This document shows positions 54,899 to 61,063 of a stretch of 64,000 nt of DNA, in pieces. Origin of the DNA: Clostridiales bacterium (GTDB lineage: Bacteria > Bacillota > Clostridia > Christensenellales > Aristaeellaceae); NCBI GenBank assembly GCA_012837965.1, contig DUQF01000026.1:62001-126000 (forward strand), written 5' to 3'. Made by a program: the position numbers and the translations under genes. The number at the start of each line of letters is the position of its first letter. Position 1 is the first letter of the stretch. The notes beneath the pieces are model-generated. The model was given only the letters and a program-made list of their open reading frames with translations, had not been told where the DNA came from and did not search any database.

Positions 54899-54999
54899 TT
54901 GTCACTAAGGGTCAAAATGTGATAAAATGTACCCGTTAAAACTAGCGGTCTGCCGATGTCCTTTGGACGGGTTTTTCCTTATAATTTAGCTAGGCAGAC
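54899..54999 (+). promoter_or_regulatory. Promoter and terminator-containing leader of the PII-like/DUF1538 operon
   Basis: TTGTCA (54899-54904) and TAAAAT (54923-54928) are 18 nt apart. Downstream CCG-AT-GTCC-TTT-GGAC-GGG followed by TTTTT (54953-54976) is an intrinsic-terminator-like hairpin well before the gene start at 55021. ACCCGT (54931-54936) could pair with ACGGGT (54967-54972), and GTCTGCC (54948-54954) with GGCAGAC (54993-54999), both incompatible with the terminator stem. This looks like an attenuated leader or riboswitch of unknown ligand. Confidence 0.45.
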
Positions 55000-55020
55000 G
55001 CACGGAAGGATACTTATTCA

Positions 55021-55683
55021 ATGGCAGTAGGATCATGCGTGTTCGTTATTGTGAACCGAGGAAACGCCAACCAGCTTCTGCAAGTGGTGCAGCATCTGGG
55101 CGCTCTTCGGGGCACTATTTTTTTAGGGGAGGGAACAGTCCCTTCGCGCTGGGCAAACTGGTTGGGCATCAGCAAAACCGAAAAAGAAGTATTGCTCATC
55201 GCTGTGCCCGATGAGCTTCGGAACAATCTATATAGCCTGCTCAGGCAGCGTTTTCAGATGCACAAGCGATATAAAGGCATCGTGTTTTCGGTACCCTATC
55301 GGGCGTTCCATCCGGAAACGGGCACACACCGCCCCTTCAACCGCTATGAGGATGCCCCCTATGTATGCTTAATGACGGTGGTCGAAAAAGGGCTTGGGCA
55401 AGAGTGTATGGCGCATGCCCGTGCAGCAGGCGCCCAAGGCGGCACTATTATTCATGCGCACGGAGCCGGGGTGCCGCAAGATTTTTATTTTCCTCTGGTA
55501 ATAGAGCCTCAAAAGGAAATTGTTTTGATTGTCACAAAGCGGGAAAATGCCACCGCTATCAGGGACAATATTTATACGCAAATGCAGCTGGAGCGTAAAG
55601 GTTCAGGTATTCTTTTTGCGTTGCCCGTTACTCAGACACTGGGATTGTATGAGGAGTGGCAGCAGGAAAGGAGAGCCACATGA
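55021..55683 (+). CDS. Protein with two PII (GlnB)-like domains
   Basis: A 220-residue protein with two halves of the same kind. Each has a beta strand with VxVxxRG or VEKGLGQECMAHA, then AxGAxGGTIxxAxG, a hydrophobic IxLIVxxxE strand, a helix and GIxFxxP. This is the ferredoxin-like PII/CutA pattern. Such proteins sense ATP, ADP and 2-oxoglutarate, and variants bind other ligands. Its stop overlaps the DUF1538 membrane protein, which has a third such domain. The classical T-loop tyrosine is not evident. A GGAAGGA site lies 10 nt upstream. Confidence 0.75.
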   Translation: MAVGSCVFVIVNRGNANQLLQVVQHLGALRGTIFLGEGTVPSRWANWLGISKTEKEVLLIAVPDELRNNLYSLLRQRFQMHKRYKGIVFSVPYRAFHPETGTHRPFNRYEDAPYVCLMTVVEKGLGQECMAHARAAGAQGGTIIHAHGAGVPQDFYFPLVIEPQKEIVLIVTKRENATAIRDNIYTQMQLERKGSGILFALPVTQTLGLYEEWQQERRAT

Positions 55684-57539
55684 ACTTGTTGCGCAGAAAA
55701 TTTGATGAAGTACTCCGTTCCCTCCTGCCGGTCGTGGTTTTGGTTATGCTTTTGTCACTCACTTTGGTCAAGGCCGATGAGCAGACCATCGCCAACTTCC
55801 TTCTGGGCGCCCTGCTGTTATTGGTGGGCCTTGGTATCTTTTTATTGGGCGTGGATTTGGCCATGATACCTATCGGTACACACATGGCGACGGAAGTGGC
55901 AACCTCTAAATCCATTTGGCGCATTGCCCTGCTTGCTTTTTTGATGGGGCTTTTGGTCACCGTTGCAGAACCCGACCTGCAAATTTTAGGCGCTCAGGTG
56001 GAAGCTGCCTCCGGCGGCGCCATTTCCGGCCGGATGATGGTTTTTTTGGTGTCGGTGGGTGTGGGTTTCCTGATCACCTTGGGTACCATTCGTTTGCTGA
56101 GCGGAAAGATGAGCTATGCCATGTTCATGGCCTTAGCTTACGCTGGGATTCTTATTTTATCCATTTTCGTGTCCGAAGAATTTTTGGCCATTTCCTTTGA
56201 TTCTTCGGGCGCTACCACAGGCGCCCTCACAACGCCCTTTATTCTTGCTTTGTCAGCAGGCTTATCTAAAGTCAAGGGAGGCAAGTCGACTGAGGAAGAT
56301 TCTTTCGGCATGGTAGGCGTTATGTCCGCGGGACCCATGTATGCCTTAATGCTCATGAGCATTATTACCGGACAAAAAAAGATTGTCGGTTTTCCGGCCG
56401 CCACAAAAACTCTTAGCGCAATTGAGCTTTTTCCCCATGAGCTGCTCAATGCCGTGATTGCCTTGGCTCCCTTGTGCGCCATGTTTTTCTTTTTGAATTT
56501 TATTCACTTCAAGGCGCCCAAGCGTGAAATTATGGGTATTATTAAAGGTATTATCTATACCATTTTTGGTCTGGCTTTGTTTTTAACAGGAGTCAACTCC
56601 GGTTTCATGGATATGGGCAAGCTTATTGGCGCAAGGATTGCGGGCAACTATCTCTGGCTTTTGCCGGGCGTAGGGCTGATGCTTGGCGCTATTGTGGTGC
56701 TGATGGAGCCGGCCGTCATTGTCCTTGGACACCAAATTGAAGAGGTGACCGGCGGGCGTATTCCCTTGAATATGATTAGGCTCACCCTGTCAATTGGCGT
56801 TGCCCTTGCCATTGGCTGTAGTATGCTGCGCATCATGATACCTTCGGTTAAACTGTGGTATTTCTTGTTGCCCGGCTTTTTGCTCGGTGTTATTTTGTCT
56901 TTCCAGGCTGATCCGGTCTTTGTAGGCATTGCCTATGATGCCGGCGGCGTTGCTTCAGGCCCCATGACGGCCACCTTTGTTCTTGCCTTTGCGCAGGGCG
57001 CCGCCATGCAAATTCCTACTGCTAATGTCATGGTAGACGGCTTTGGCGTTATCGCTATGGTTGCCATGGCGCCGGTACTGTCCATTATGATTTTAGGCGC
57101 TATTTTCCGCCACAAGGAGGCTACTGTGCCAGAAAAAACCAGACAACCCTTACCTGCTTCCGCTCACCTTGCAGGGAAAATTCAAGATTATGATTGCGTT
57201 ATTGCCATCTTAGAGAAAGGTCTGGCCGATGAGGCCGTGGCGCTGGCAAGAGAAACGGGCGCTCGGGGCGCAACCATTCTTAACGGACGCGGCAGCGGGG
57301 GACAGCACATGCATCTGTTCAGTTTCGAGGTTCAAAAGGAAAAAGAGGTTGTTTTCTGGCTGGTGGATGCCCGCATCACCGATAAGATGGCGCAGCATAT
57401 TCATGATAGTCTGGATCTTGGTTCTCAGGGCAGCGGAACGGTGTTTATTCTGCCTTCGGGCGCTATTGGCTTGGATGCGCCCGTTACCATCGGGCAGAGT
57501 CCGCGCCACATGAGCGCAGAGCGAGAAACGGAAAGCTGA
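55680..57539 (+). CDS. DUF1538 family membrane transporter with C-terminal PII-like domain
   Basis: A 619-residue protein with two DUF1538 repeats of about six membrane helices each (first: LLGVDLAMIPIGTHMATEV, second: VVLMEPAVIVLGHQIEEVTG, both with AEPDL/MEPAV helices) and a cytosolic C-terminal PII-like domain (~505-605, VIAILEKGLADEAVALARET, RGATILNGRGSGG). DUF1538 proteins (UmpA/UmpB in Halomonas) have been reported as Na+(Li+,K+)/H+ antiporters. Overlaps the PII gene by 4 nt (ATGA). Regulation by ligand-bound PII domains is likely. Confidence 0.8.
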   Translation: MNLLRRKFDEVLRSLLPVVVLVMLLSLTLVKADEQTIANFLLGALLLLVGLGIFLLGVDLAMIPIGTHMATEVATSKSIWRIALLAFLMGLLVTVAEPDLQILGAQVEAASGGAISGRMMVFLVSVGVGFLITLGTIRLLSGKMSYAMFMALAYAGILILSIFVSEEFLAISFDSSGATTGALTTPFILALSAGLSKVKGGKSTEEDSFGMVGVMSAGPMYALMLMSIITGQKKIVGFPAATKTLSAIELFPHELLNAVIALAPLCAMFFFLNFIHFKAPKREIMGIIKGIIYTIFGLALFLTGVNSGFMDMGKLIGARIAGNYLWLLPGVGLMLGAIVVLMEPAVIVLGHQIEEVTGGRIPLNMIRLTLSIGVALAIGCSMLRIMIPSVKLWYFLLPGFLLGVILSFQADPVFVGIAYDAGGVASGPMTATFVLAFAQGAAMQIPTANVMVDGFGVIAMVAMAPVLSIMILGAIFRHKEATVPEKTRQPLPASAHLAGKIQDYDCVIAILEKGLADEAVALARETGARGATILNGRGSGGQHMHLFSFEVQKEKEVVFWLVDARITDKMAQHIHDSLDLGSQGSGTVFILPSGAIGLDAPVTIGQSPRHMSAERETES

Positions 57540-57626: not shown

Positions 57627-58829
57627 TTATTCTTCCGGGACGTTTTCAAAAAAGTCATTTTTTTGGATGTCGTTACCTACACGGGTGCCTGCTAGGCCAA
57701 ACTTGGAGCTGTCGTACTTGTTGTTCTTACCCATCTGGTGGTTTTTATTCTGCGAACGGTGCAGCTTGAAGGCGGCTTCCGCCAGCTTCAGCGGCGTTTG
57801 GCCATCAAGCTTTTCATGCGGGGTTTTCCAATCCATCACGATAGGGTTTTCCTCATGCAGATGCAGGTACAGTTTGCTAATTTCCCATGTGCCGAATTCC
57901 TGGGTGCTCTTTGGGTCCACGCTTTTTTTGCCGGCTTCATGAAAGGCGTAGACGGCAAGTTCCGAGCAGACGCGATGAGCGGAATGGCCATACTCTCCGT
58001 TTACATCATGGCTGATGAGCACCTTGGGCTTGTACTTGCGTACCAGCTCTACCACAAAGTCCTCCACCTCGTTTTTGCCCCAAAAGTCATACATTTTTTT
58101 CATGGTCGGTTGGTTTTTGTCTCGAAACTGTCCGATGACCGGATAGTTACGAATGCCCATAGACCATAGGCCGTTGAGCAGTTCGCTTTGGCGCATATTG
58201 TTGGCACAAGTTAGGTAACAGACAACCACGCGCTTGTTTCGTACCCGTTCATAGTAGGGGATGGTGCCACCCATGAACAGCAGCTCATCATCGGGATGCG
58301 CTACCAGTACCATCAGGTCGGCTGTTTCATAGGTGGGCTGCCAGCGCTGCACCCAGTCGGGCGGGGTATGGCCCTGGAGGACGAACAGCTCGCCCAAGAT
58401 GATGTTTGCGCTTTCATTGGCCTGCATCACCAAACGCAGGCCACCGCCGCCTTTGACTTCCACATATTCGTGCGCAAAGCCGCTATCATCGCTTTGGGCA
58501 ACTTCCTGATCGTTCTGATAGAGGGTCCAAGTATCGGGGCGGGTTCCCCAGCATAGGTAAAGCCCGCCGCAGTCAAAGTGTTTGGGGAGTTCAATGCGGA
58601 TGGTCGATTCTCTGCCCATATTGCCGACCCATACGGTCATGTACTTTTTGTCGGTGATGTTTTTGCGGGCGGTTGATCCGCCGTTCAGATAGATACGGCA
58701 ATCGCGGGTGACATCAATGGCTTCTTGGGCCAAAGAACCAACAGGGCAAAGCGGGAGGGTAAAGAGCAGAAAAAGCAGGCAGCATAGCCGTTTCAAAATG
58801 GTGTGAGTGTTTGTTGTCTGTTTTGTCAC
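57627..58829 (-). CDS. Secreted PIG-L family deacetylase (LmbE-like)
   Basis: A 400-residue exported enzyme. A signal peptide with LCCLLFLLFTLPLCPVGSLA is followed by a beta-rich, discoidin-like domain (residues ~35-160) and the PIG-L domain with AHPDDE (177-182) and GHSAH (281-285), the zinc-binding residues. Family members remove N-acetyl groups from GlcNAc-type sugars such as GlcNAc-inositol. The GTG at 58829 has AAAGGA 8 nt upstream; the in-frame codon at 58862 lacks a site. It is convergent with the DUF1538 gene. Confidence 0.85.
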   Translation of the reverse strand: MTKQTTNTHTILKRLCCLLFLLFTLPLCPVGSLAQEAIDVTRDCRIYLNGGSTARKNITDKKYMTVWVGNMGRESTIRIELPKHFDCGGLYLCWGTRPDTWTLYQNDQEVAQSDDSGFAHEYVEVKGGGGLRLVMQANESANIILGELFVLQGHTPPDWVQRWQPTYETADLMVLVAHPDDELLFMGGTIPYYERVRNKRVVVCYLTCANNMRQSELLNGLWSMGIRNYPVIGQFRDKNQPTMKKMYDFWGKNEVEDFVVELVRKYKPKVLISHDVNGEYGHSAHRVCSELAVYAFHEAGKKSVDPKSTQEFGTWEISKLYLHLHEENPIVMDWKTPHEKLDGQTPLKLAEAAFKLHRSQNKNHQMGKNNKYDSSKFGLAGTRVGNDIQKNDFFENVPEE

Positions 58830-58920
58830 GGTTTCAATCCTTTCAGTTAAGGAACACCGCAAAAGGGTGCTCCATTGTTTGCCTACTTATTTTATCGTAT
58901 CGTAGGTGAAATGGCAATGA

Positions 58921-58984: not shown

Positions 58985-61063
58985 TTACACACTTTCCAAA
59001 ATTTCGCCATAAGAAGGCAGCGGCCATAGGCTACGCTCACTAAGAACTTCTGCTTTATCGGCGATGGAGCGCATTTTATTCATTTCGGGCAATACCTGAT
59101 GGCGATATACCTGTGTTTTTTCGATGGAACCTTGAGTGTTTTCTGCTGTTTTTAAGGCGCTTTCCAGCTGCTCAATGGATTTATACATGGCTTCGCACAG
59201 GTCGTTCAAGGCAAAAATGGTGTTCATTTCCGAGCCTTCCTTACCGATAATCGCCTTTTTGTGGTAGCTTGTCGTGCAAAGAATATCCAATTGCTTTAAG
59301 ATAGCGGGCAAGAGATCCCTTCGGGCAATGTCCAGCATGCTTCGCCCCTCGATAGCAATGGTGCTTGAATAGTTTTCGGCCAGCACTTCCTGTCTGCTGA
59401 ACAACTCGCCTTCAGAAAGGATGTTATACTTTTGAAACAGGGTCAGGTTTTTTTCTGTCGTCAGATAAGGTAGGCAGTCGGGCACGGAGGCCAGGTTTAA
59501 TAAGCCACGTTTCTGCGCTTCTTTTACCCATTCCGCGGAGTAGGCGTTGCCGTTGAAAATGATGCGTTTGTGTTTTTTGATGGTTTGGACAATCAAGTTT
59601 TGGCAGGCGGTTTGGAAAGATTCGGCCTTTTCTAAAATATCGGCAAATTCGCACAAGGCATTGGCAACAATGGTATTTAAGACAATGTTGGGCGTTGCGG
59701 TGGAAGATGATGAGCCCAAGGAGCGAAACTCAAACTTGTTGCCCGAAAAGGCGAGGGGCGTGGTGCGGTTTCTATCGGAGGAATCCTTGGGAATGCGGGG
59801 CAGCATATGAACGCCCACACTCATTCCGCCCGTACTTTCTTTGACATAGGTGTTATGGTTTTCAAGCGCTTCCAAAACGCCCGTTAATTCTTCGCCCAAG
59901 AATATGGAAATGATGGCCGGCGGCGCTTCATAGCCGCCCAGGCGCCAGTCATTTGAGGCGGTCGCAACCGACAGCCGCAGCAAATCCTGGTGTTCGTCAA
60001 CTGCTTTAATCACAGCGCAGAGGAAGATGAGAAACTGCGCGTCCTCCTGCGGGGTTTCGCCGGGTTCAAGCAGGTTGTAGCCGGTATCGGTACACAGGCT
60101 CCAGTTATTGTGCTTGCCCGAACCGTTGATACCCTGGAAAGGTTTTTCATGCAACAAACATACCATGCCATGATCCTGAGCGGTGTTTTTAAGCAAGTCC
60201 ATCATCAGTTGGTTATGATCGGTGGCGGTGTTGGCATCCTCATATACGGGGGCAATCTCATGTTGGGCGGGCGCAGTTTCGTTATGCTCGGTACGGCAAG
60301 GGACGCCCAGCTTCCATAGCTCCTGATTGAGGGCATGGCTAAAAGCTTTGACCCTTTTTTGGATGGAGCCAAAGTAGTGGTCGCTTAATTCCTGCCCCTT
60401 AACGGGCGGTGCGCCAAAGAGGGTACGGCCCGATACCTTAAGGTCGGGGCGTTTATTATACATTTCCTCGTCGATCAGGAAAAATTCCTGCTCTGCCCCC
60501 ACGGTGGGAATCACACGCTTCACATCCCTGTTTTGAAACAGGCGCAGGATGCGCAGACTTTGGCGACTGATTTCATCCATGGAGCGCAGGAGGGGCGTTT
60601 TTTTATCCAGCGCTTCACCCGAATAGGAGATAAACACGGAGGGAATATATAAGGTTTTTCCTTTGATAAAGGCATAACTTGTCGGGTCCCAGCCGGTATA
60701 GCCACGAGCTTCAAAGGTTGCCCGAAGACCGCCTGTGGGCAAGCTGGAGGCGTCAGGCTCTCCCCGCACCAGCTCCTTGCCGCAAAAATCCATCATGACC
60801 CGTCCGTTTCCATCGGGGTTGAGAAAAGCTTCATGTTTTTCGGCGGTCACGCCCGTGAGCGGCTGGAACCAATGGGTAAAGTGCGTGCAGCCCTTTTCAA
60901 CCGCCCAGTCTTTCATAGCGTTTGCCACCACATCGGCCACCTCTTCGGACAGGGGTTTGCCGGTTTTTCGGGTTTGGGCAAGGGCTTTGAAGGTTTCCTT
61001 GGGAAGCCTTGAGCGCATGGCCTGCTCATTAAACACCAAGCTGCCAAAAATTTCCTGAATCAT
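58985..61063 (-). CDS. glnN: Glutamine synthetase type III (GlnN)
   Basis: A 692-residue enzyme that makes glutamine from glutamate, ammonia and ATP. Type III signature segments are MRSRLPKETF (near 17), HFTHWFQPLTG (60-71), ATFEARGYTGWDPTSYAF, EQEFFLIDEEMYNKRPDL and GSGKHNNWSLCTDTGYNLL. Length (~700) and absence of the type I adenylylation site separate it from GlnA. It forms an operon with asnA 9 nt upstream. Confidence 0.95.
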   Translation of the reverse strand: MIQEIFGSLVFNEQAMRSRLPKETFKALAQTRKTGKPLSEEVADVVANAMKDWAVEKGCTHFTHWFQPLTGVTAEKHEAFLNPDGNGRVMMDFCGKELVRGEPDASSLPTGGLRATFEARGYTGWDPTSYAFIKGKTLYIPSVFISYSGEALDKKTPLLRSMDEISRQSLRILRLFQNRDVKRVIPTVGAEQEFFLIDEEMYNKRPDLKVSGRTLFGAPPVKGQELSDHYFGSIQKRVKAFSHALNQELWKLGVPCRTEHNETAPAQHEIAPVYEDANTATDHNQLMMDLLKNTAQDHGMVCLLHEKPFQGINGSGKHNNWSLCTDTGYNLLEPGETPQEDAQFLIFLCAVIKAVDEHQDLLRLSVATASNDWRLGGYEAPPAIISIFLGEELTGVLEALENHNTYVKESTGGMSVGVHMLPRIPKDSSDRNRTTPLAFSGNKFEFRSLGSSSSTATPNIVLNTIVANALCEFADILEKAESFQTACQNLIVQTIKKHKRIIFNGNAYSAEWVKEAQKRGLLNLASVPDCLPYLTTEKNLTLFQKYNILSEGELFSRQEVLAENYSSTIAIEGRSMLDIARRDLLPAILKQLDILCTTSYHKKAIIGKEGSEMNTIFALNDLCEAMYKSIEQLESALKTAENTQGSIEKTQVYRHQVLPEMNKMRSIADKAEVLSERSLWPLPSYGEILESV

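What the first reader, a model, noticed from the sequence alone, without database searches (positions are those of the whole stretch)
54899..57539. PII-like protein and DUF1538 transporter with three PII-type domains and an attenuator-like leader
The gene at 55021 has two PII-like halves, and the overlapping transporter gene carries a third PII-like domain after two DUF1538 repeats. A terminator-like hairpin (54953-54976) stands between promoter and gene, with two sequences that could compete for it. Family knowledge: DUF1538 proteins UmpA/UmpB were reported as cation/proton antiporters and PII proteins bind nucleotides or 2-oxoglutarate. Inference: ligand-gated ion transport controlled by an RNA switch as well.
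Basis: partly seen in the sequence, partly recalled or inferred. Interest (0 to 1): 0.6.

Follow-up and report, generated by a model that had tools for sequence, protein, structure and literature searches.

The report
PII-controlled cation antiporter operon
Two overlapping genes encode a predicted sodium/potassium-proton antiporter and its own set of three PII-type sensor domains, one fused to the transporter and two joined in a partner protein; the protein finding is real and part of a widespread, apparently unpublished pairing, but the proposed RNA switch in front of it is not supported.

Summary
The protein half of the finding is right. Gene 55021-55683 encodes two PII domains (diPII). Gene 55680-57539 overlaps it by ATGA and encodes two DUF1538 repeats plus a third, flexibly tethered PII domain. 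The same layout occurs in 19 clostridial loci, and its three PII domains form three separate, fully supported clades. More generally, DUF1538 transporters in Bacillota are followed by one or two PII domains in 48 of 49 loci with enough sequence. The genome's only other PII sits beside an Na+/H+ exchanger, a pairing seen in 15 of 15 loci checked; the genome has no Amt. Best reading: a dedicated PII-gated monovalent cation/proton antiporter. Canonical ATP/2-oxoglutarate residues are replaced at several positions, so the ligand is unknown. The RNA-switch half is not supported: hairpin and competitor are each borderline against shuffles (P about 0.05), the fold is ordinary, no Rfam family matches, and relatives' leaders share neither sequence nor covarying pairs. 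New variant of a known kind (AmtB-GlnK, SbtA-SbtB).

The parts
54899..54928 (+). promoter-like site TTGTCA-18-TAAAAT with TG before the second hexamer
   Evidence: consensus scan, 10 of 12 matches; not evidence of function by itself
54948..54999 (+). leader segment with a possible 7-bp helix GTCTGCC (54948-54954) / GGCAGAC (54993-54999) that would compete with the hairpin
   Evidence: sequence; P 0.051 in 1000 shuffles; pair counts on 12 leaders no better than shuffles
54953..54976 (+). weak hairpin followed by TTTTT (terminator-like)
   Evidence: (-6.2 kcal/mol, P 0.05 in 60 shuffles); not conserved
55021..55683 (+). diPII protein: two PII domains (about residues 1-98 and 112-212)
   Evidence: Pfam P-II; AF2 pLDDT 79, pTM 0.79; VIA Z 9.5 and 9.2 to CPII and PII
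55680..57539 (+). DUF1538-DUF1538-PII fusion protein, predicted monovalent cation/proton antiporter with its own PII tail
   Evidence: Pfam DUF1538 404.9 bits and P-II 28.8 bits; AF2 pLDDT 80
57189..57494 (+). third PII domain (about residues 504-605), after a disordered linker (residues 483-501)
   Evidence: Pfam P-II 32.6 bits on the tail (protein 4); low pLDDT linker; VIA Z 10.1 to 1hwu

Best explanation
This is a dedicated PII-gated transporter operon. One promoter drives two coupled genes: a cytosolic protein of two linked PII domains, then a UmpA-UmpB-like DUF1538 transporter (both halves in one chain) carrying a third PII domain on a flexible tether. The three PII domains are paralogues with conserved, different loops (d1 'GEGT', d2 '[H/R]GAG[V/I]P', d3 mostly 'RG[S/T]' followed by variable residues). 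They most likely assemble at the cytosolic mouth of the transporter and open or block monovalent cation/proton exchange in response to an intracellular small ligand, as SbtB does for SbtA and GlnK for AmtB. Shown: domain content, predicted folds, operon layout, conservation and linkage. Inferred: transport substrate (from UmpAB of Halomonas), physical complex, direction of control, ligand. The leader hairpin is most likely incidental, or at most a lineage-specific basal attenuator.
For: Domain and fold evidence. Same three-PII layout in all 19 loci found, with A_d1, A_d2 and A_d3 each one clade at 100/100, 100/100 and 100/99. PII downstream of DUF1538 in 48 of 49 Bacillota loci with enough flank, and DUF1538, DUF1538, PII in Methylocystis and Chelativorans plasmids. 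UmpAB gave Na+(Li+,K+)/H+ antiport from a clone whose intact ORFs were an MFS permease and umpAB, with no PII gene reported (PMC5484666), so a PII is more likely a regulator than a catalytic part. A second antiporter family in the same genome is also paired with a PII. No Amt and no other PII in the genome, so the PII here is not for classical ammonium control.
Against: No physical interaction, ligand or transport assay. Single-chain models only; no complex could be predicted. UmpAB is a distant relative, below the NCBIfam cut-offs. The transporter core found no solved structural match at E 0.001. One of 49 loci (L130) has no recognisable PII downstream. The linkage count drew on the better-scoring loci, so it is not a random sample.
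Confidence: 0.68

Rival explanations
1. Each PII type makes its own homotrimer: three diPII chains bridge a d1 ring and a d2 ring, and the tails of a trimeric transporter form a third ring. Control is the same in kind, but there is no mixed ring.
For: The SbtB ring is a homotrimer sitting on a trimeric transporter (PMC8352866), and classical PII are homotrimers. The common clostridial type has diPII but no third PII domain, so diPII can evidently assemble without d3.
Against: The third domain arose once and was kept in every member of the three-PII type, which gives two linked plus one tethered domain per transporter chain, exactly one ring's worth.
Confidence: 0.4
2. The PII domains are structural or assembly subunits of the transporter and sense no ligand.
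For: Canonical phosphate and 2-oxoglutarate positions are lost (position 90 mostly I, 39 mostly H, S or P).
Against: T29, G35 and K58 remain highly conserved in most groups, and the loops are conserved per domain type, which suggests a kept ligand or contact site. UmpAB works from a clone without a reported PII gene (PMC5484666).
Confidence: 0.2
3. The leader is a genuine attenuator or riboswitch that controls the operon in this lineage.
For: Hairpin plus T-run between promoter and gene, with a 7-bp competitor. Hairpin-plus-T-run sites also lie between promoter and gene in L046, L047 and L050.
Against: Borderline statistics; no Rfam match; no shared structure or covariation in 12 leaders; the nearest relative by diPII identity (L041, 70%) has no hairpin with T-run.
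Confidence: 0.12
4. The PII domains report nitrogen state for a glutamine synthetase III encoded nearby.
For: A GlnN-like ORF lies at 58985-61063 on the opposite strand (named from sequence recognition, not tested).
Against: PII follows the transporter across Bacillota and Alphaproteobacteria; no Amt or other PII in the genome.
Confidence: 0.04

Closest known systems
UmpAB, two-component Na+(Li+,K+)/H+ antiporter of Halomonas zhaodongensis (DUF1538; PMC5484666)
   Same: Two DUF1538 modules acting as a pair; both modules here match PF07556.
   Different: Here both modules are in one chain with a PII tail and a diPII partner; scores are far below the UmpA/UmpB equivalog cut-offs; the UmpAB paper's main text does not mention PII.
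SbtA-SbtB, bicarbonate transporter with PII-like regulator (PMC8352866)
   Same: Transporter and a dedicated PII-like protein in one operon; a trimeric PII-like ring sits on the transporter from the cytosol.
   Different: Different transporter family; SbtB is a separate single-domain homotrimer, whereas here three paralogous PII domains are linked and partly fused to the transporter.
AmtB-GlnK, ammonium channel with PII
   Same: Genetically paired PII and membrane transporter.
   Different: No Amt here; PII domains lack GlnK ligand positions and have a shorter T-loop.
CPII of Thiomonas intermedia and other PII-like small-ligand proteins
   Same: Closest solved fold to domain 1 (Z 9.5).
   Different: Single-domain proteins; CPII entries are solved with ADP/AMP and bicarbonate, while the ligand is unknown here.

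Membership tests
Pfam P-II (PF00543) | Whole-protein score over the curated cut-off (25 bits) | tested here: met
   35.6 bits (diPII), 28.8 bits (fusion), 32.6 bits (tail alone); 19 of 20 related domains match at E 0.01
Pfam P-II (PF00543) | Ferredoxin-like PII fold in each of the three domains | tested here: met
   AF2 models; VIA Z 9.5 (d1), 9.2 (d2), 10.1 (d3); predictions, not structures
Canonical GlnB/GlnK signalling PII | Ligand positions 38, 39 and K/R90 and a full T-loop | tested here: not met
   Position 90 mostly I/V/L in d1, d2 and single PIIs and mostly A/T in d3; position 39 mostly H, S, K or P; column 41 gapped in all but 7 d3 rows
Canonical GlnB/GlnK signalling PII | Homotrimer binding ATP/ADP and 2-oxoglutarate | not testable with these tools
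   No complex prediction or binding assay
DUF1538 (PF07556) | Score over curated cut-off (22.6 bits), two copies | tested here: met
   404.9 bits, two stretches; two matches over cut-off in the genome
UmpA / UmpB equivalogs (NF041627, NF041628) | Score over NCBIfam cut-offs 490 and 500 | tested here: not met
   151 and 155.6 bits
UmpAB-type Na+(Li+,K+)/H+ antiporter | Monovalent cation/proton exchange | not testable with these tools
   Known for UmpAB only (PMC5484666)
Known riboswitch or attenuator RNA (Rfam) | Match to a curated RNA family | tested here: not met
   None at gathering threshold in the window other than tRNA; only a chance snoRNA match in the relaxed search
Conserved structured leader | Shared structure with covariation in homologous leaders | tested here: not met
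PII-gated transporter pair (SbtA-SbtB, AmtB-GlnK kind) | Genetic linkage of the PII with one transporter family | tested here: met
   48 of 49 Bacillota loci; plasmid records
PII-gated transporter pair (SbtA-SbtB, AmtB-GlnK kind) | Physical binding and ligand-dependent change of transport | not testable with these tools
   Needs complex prediction, pull-down and transport assay

The most novel reading that the evidence does not exclude
The diPII and the transporter tail together form one PII ring made of three different paralogous domains (d1-d2-d3), a heterotrimer covalently anchored to its antiporter. It would have evolved stepwise from single-PII through two-PII DUF1538 systems, and would sense a ligand other than ATP/2-oxoglutarate.
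Probability: 0.3. Interest if true: 0.68.

Novelty: new variant of a known kind. Interest (0 to 1): 0.47.

Why it matters
PII proteins are usually discussed as nitrogen or carbon sensors. Here an antiporter family of barely known function is almost always encoded with dedicated, non-canonical PII domains, and in one clade the PII set has grown to three distinct paralogues with one fused to the transporter. A second, unrelated antiporter family in the same genomes has its own PII partner. Together these suggest that control of cation/proton antiport is a widespread job of PII-like proteins, and they give a defined, testable system for finding the ligand and seeing how a symmetric ring might become asymmetric.

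Tried and rejected
RNA switch: Rfam at gathering and relaxed thresholds, single-sequence folding, terminator scan against shuffles in 20 leaders, leader alignment and RNAalifold, pair counts for the competitor and terminator helices, competitor-helix shuffle test; nothing beyond borderline. Leader peptide: the only start codons in the leader give a 24-codon frame from 54956, overlapping the gene start and without a visible ribosome-binding site, and an 8-codon frame from 54963; not pursued. Foldseek top hits to chlorite dismutase/HemQ-like proteins for diPII (TM 0.28, rmsd about 16) rejected as two-ferredoxin look-alikes; VIA gave a PII-like protein first. Transporter core: no solved match at E 0.001 and the VIA rows were filled by the PII tail, so its fold stays unassigned. 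Domain orientation in the diPII model could not be read because coordinates are not given, and no multimer prediction is offered. Literature: only 5 held papers mention DUF1538, and none of the searches turned up a DUF1538-PII link; subscription papers are not held. A search for PII with proton antiporters found c-di-AMP/PstA work and unrelated items.

Full report
What was checked. 55021-55683 encodes 220 residues and 55680-57539 encodes 619 residues from the ATG at 55680; stop and start overlap as ATGA. Pfam finds P-II in the first (35.6 bits, two stretches), and two DUF1538 stretches (404.9 bits) plus a C-terminal P-II (28.8 bits; 32.6 on the isolated tail) in the second. AF2 models made from window and clostridial homologues give two PII folds in the diPII (pLDDT 79, pTM 0.79) and a helical membrane core, a disordered linker at 483-501 and a PII domain in the fusion (pLDDT 80, pTM 0.72). 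VIA comparison with solved structures puts CPII first for domain 1 (Z 9.5), PII for domain 2 (Z 9.2) and PII for the tail (Z 10.1).

The leader. The promoter-like site, the hairpin at 54953-54976 with five T, and the competitor helix GTCTGCC/GGCAGAC are in the sequence. Measured against shuffles each is borderline: hairpin 0.05, competitor 0.051. The leader folds no better than shuffled sequence (z -0.65 and -0.72) and the region holds no more terminator-like sites than chance (4 against 5.0). Rfam has nothing at gathering threshold there, and the relaxed search returned one chance match. The closest homologue by diPII identity, L041 (70%), has no hairpin followed by a T-run. Hairpins with T-runs do lie between promoter and gene in L046, L047 and L050, with different sequences. 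I conclude there is no evidence of a conserved RNA switch; a lineage-specific attenuator is possible but unproven.

What the operon is. A scan of 84,980 species genomes with a diPII alignment found 19 loci, all clostridial-type metagenome assemblies. All 19 have diPII followed by a DUF1538-DUF1538-PII fusion. Within the window's family, 15 of 308 genomes have a strong diPII match, and one of these (G028) has the other layout. In that commoner layout, found in most relatives including other members of the window's genus, the DUF1538 protein comes first, is followed by diPII, and has no third PII. Further out, the DUF1538 halves are separate genes followed by one PII, by two PII genes, or by a diPII. 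In the phylum sample, DUF1538 occurs in 139 of 398 genomes. Of the 30 loci returned, one (L083) was cut by the contig end and 29 have a downstream PII; of 20 more that I chose from lower in the list, 19 have one. The exception is L130. These loci came from the listed, better-scoring part of the ranking, so the proportion is not a random-sample estimate.

The three PII domains. A domain tree (160 rows, few columns, so many forks unresolved) places A_d1, A_d2 and A_d3 each on one side of a fully supported branch (100/100, 100/100, 100/99). A_d1 falls with the d1 domains of the common layout; A_d2 and A_d3 fall within the d2 radiation. The set of three therefore appears to have arisen once and been kept. 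Residues at canonical PII ligand positions differ: position 90 (K/R) is mostly I, V or L in d1, d2 and single PIIs and mostly A or T in d3; position 39 (Q) is mostly H in single PIIs, d2 of the common layout and d3, S in A_d1, and P in all A_d2; T29, G35 and K58 are highly conserved in most groups. Positions 101 and 103 were not scored because the mapping sequence ends at 100. I infer that these are non-canonical PII sensors whose ligand cannot be read from known PII.

Mechanism. UmpAB, the only characterised DUF1538 pair that I found, gives Na+(Li+,K+)/H+ antiport; the active clone carried an MFS permease and umpAB as its intact ORFs, no PII gene was reported, and the paper's main text does not mention PII (PMC5484666). 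That makes a PII a likely regulator rather than a catalytic part. SbtB on SbtA shows how a PII-like trimer sits on a transporter and partly blocks its exit with the T-loop (PMC8352866). By analogy, and given linkage and fusion, I propose that the PII domains gate the antiporter from the cytosol. Whether d1, d2 and d3 form one mixed ring or separate rings is open; the arithmetic (two linked plus one tethered per transporter chain) favours a mixed ring only weakly, because the common layout manages without d3.

A second pairing. The only other PII in the genome lies directly downstream of a PF00999 Na+/H+ exchanger. All 15 loci examined for that PII, in the window's own genome and 14 relatives, have an exchanger of this family next to it, in either gene order. 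The genome has no ammonium transporter, so every PII domain detected in it sits with a cation/proton antiporter.

Novelty. PII-transporter pairs are a known kind. A dedicated PII for DUF1538 antiporters, a diPII, and a three-paralogue set with one domain fused to the transporter were not found in the held literature, which lacks most subscription papers. I file it as a new variant of a known kind.

Noticed in passing
own genome G000:C22:28622-28963 (L105, L039) and loci L106-L119: A second type of PII-like gene sits directly beside a PF00999 Na+/H+ exchanger in 15 of 15 loci, as NHE-PII in the window's genus and PII-NHE elsewhere.
   Followed up: partly
whole genome G000: No Amt ammonium transporter and no classical GlnB/GlnK found; all detected PII domains are at antiporter loci. 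The assembly is 97.6% complete.
   Followed up: partly
L046:2472-2577, L047:3875-3982: In two related genomes the leader of the same operon has TGCAATC...GATTGCA around the GGGAGG ribosome-binding site, and CAGTTTT/AAAACTG at and after a T-run; this could hide the start site.
   Followed up: no
L124: Two complete DUF1538-DUF1538-PII units in tandem in one Bacillota genome.
   Followed up: no
window 58985-61063 (-) and 57627-58862 (-): The large ORF looks like a type III glutamine synthetase (GlnN), convergent with the operon; the ORF between looks like a PIG-L/LmbE-type deacetylase. Named by eye, not tested.
   Followed up: no
L031:2937-3530 and L044:6864-7460: A small membrane protein with a UBA-like N-terminus (named by eye) follows the operon in two relatives.
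   Followed up: no
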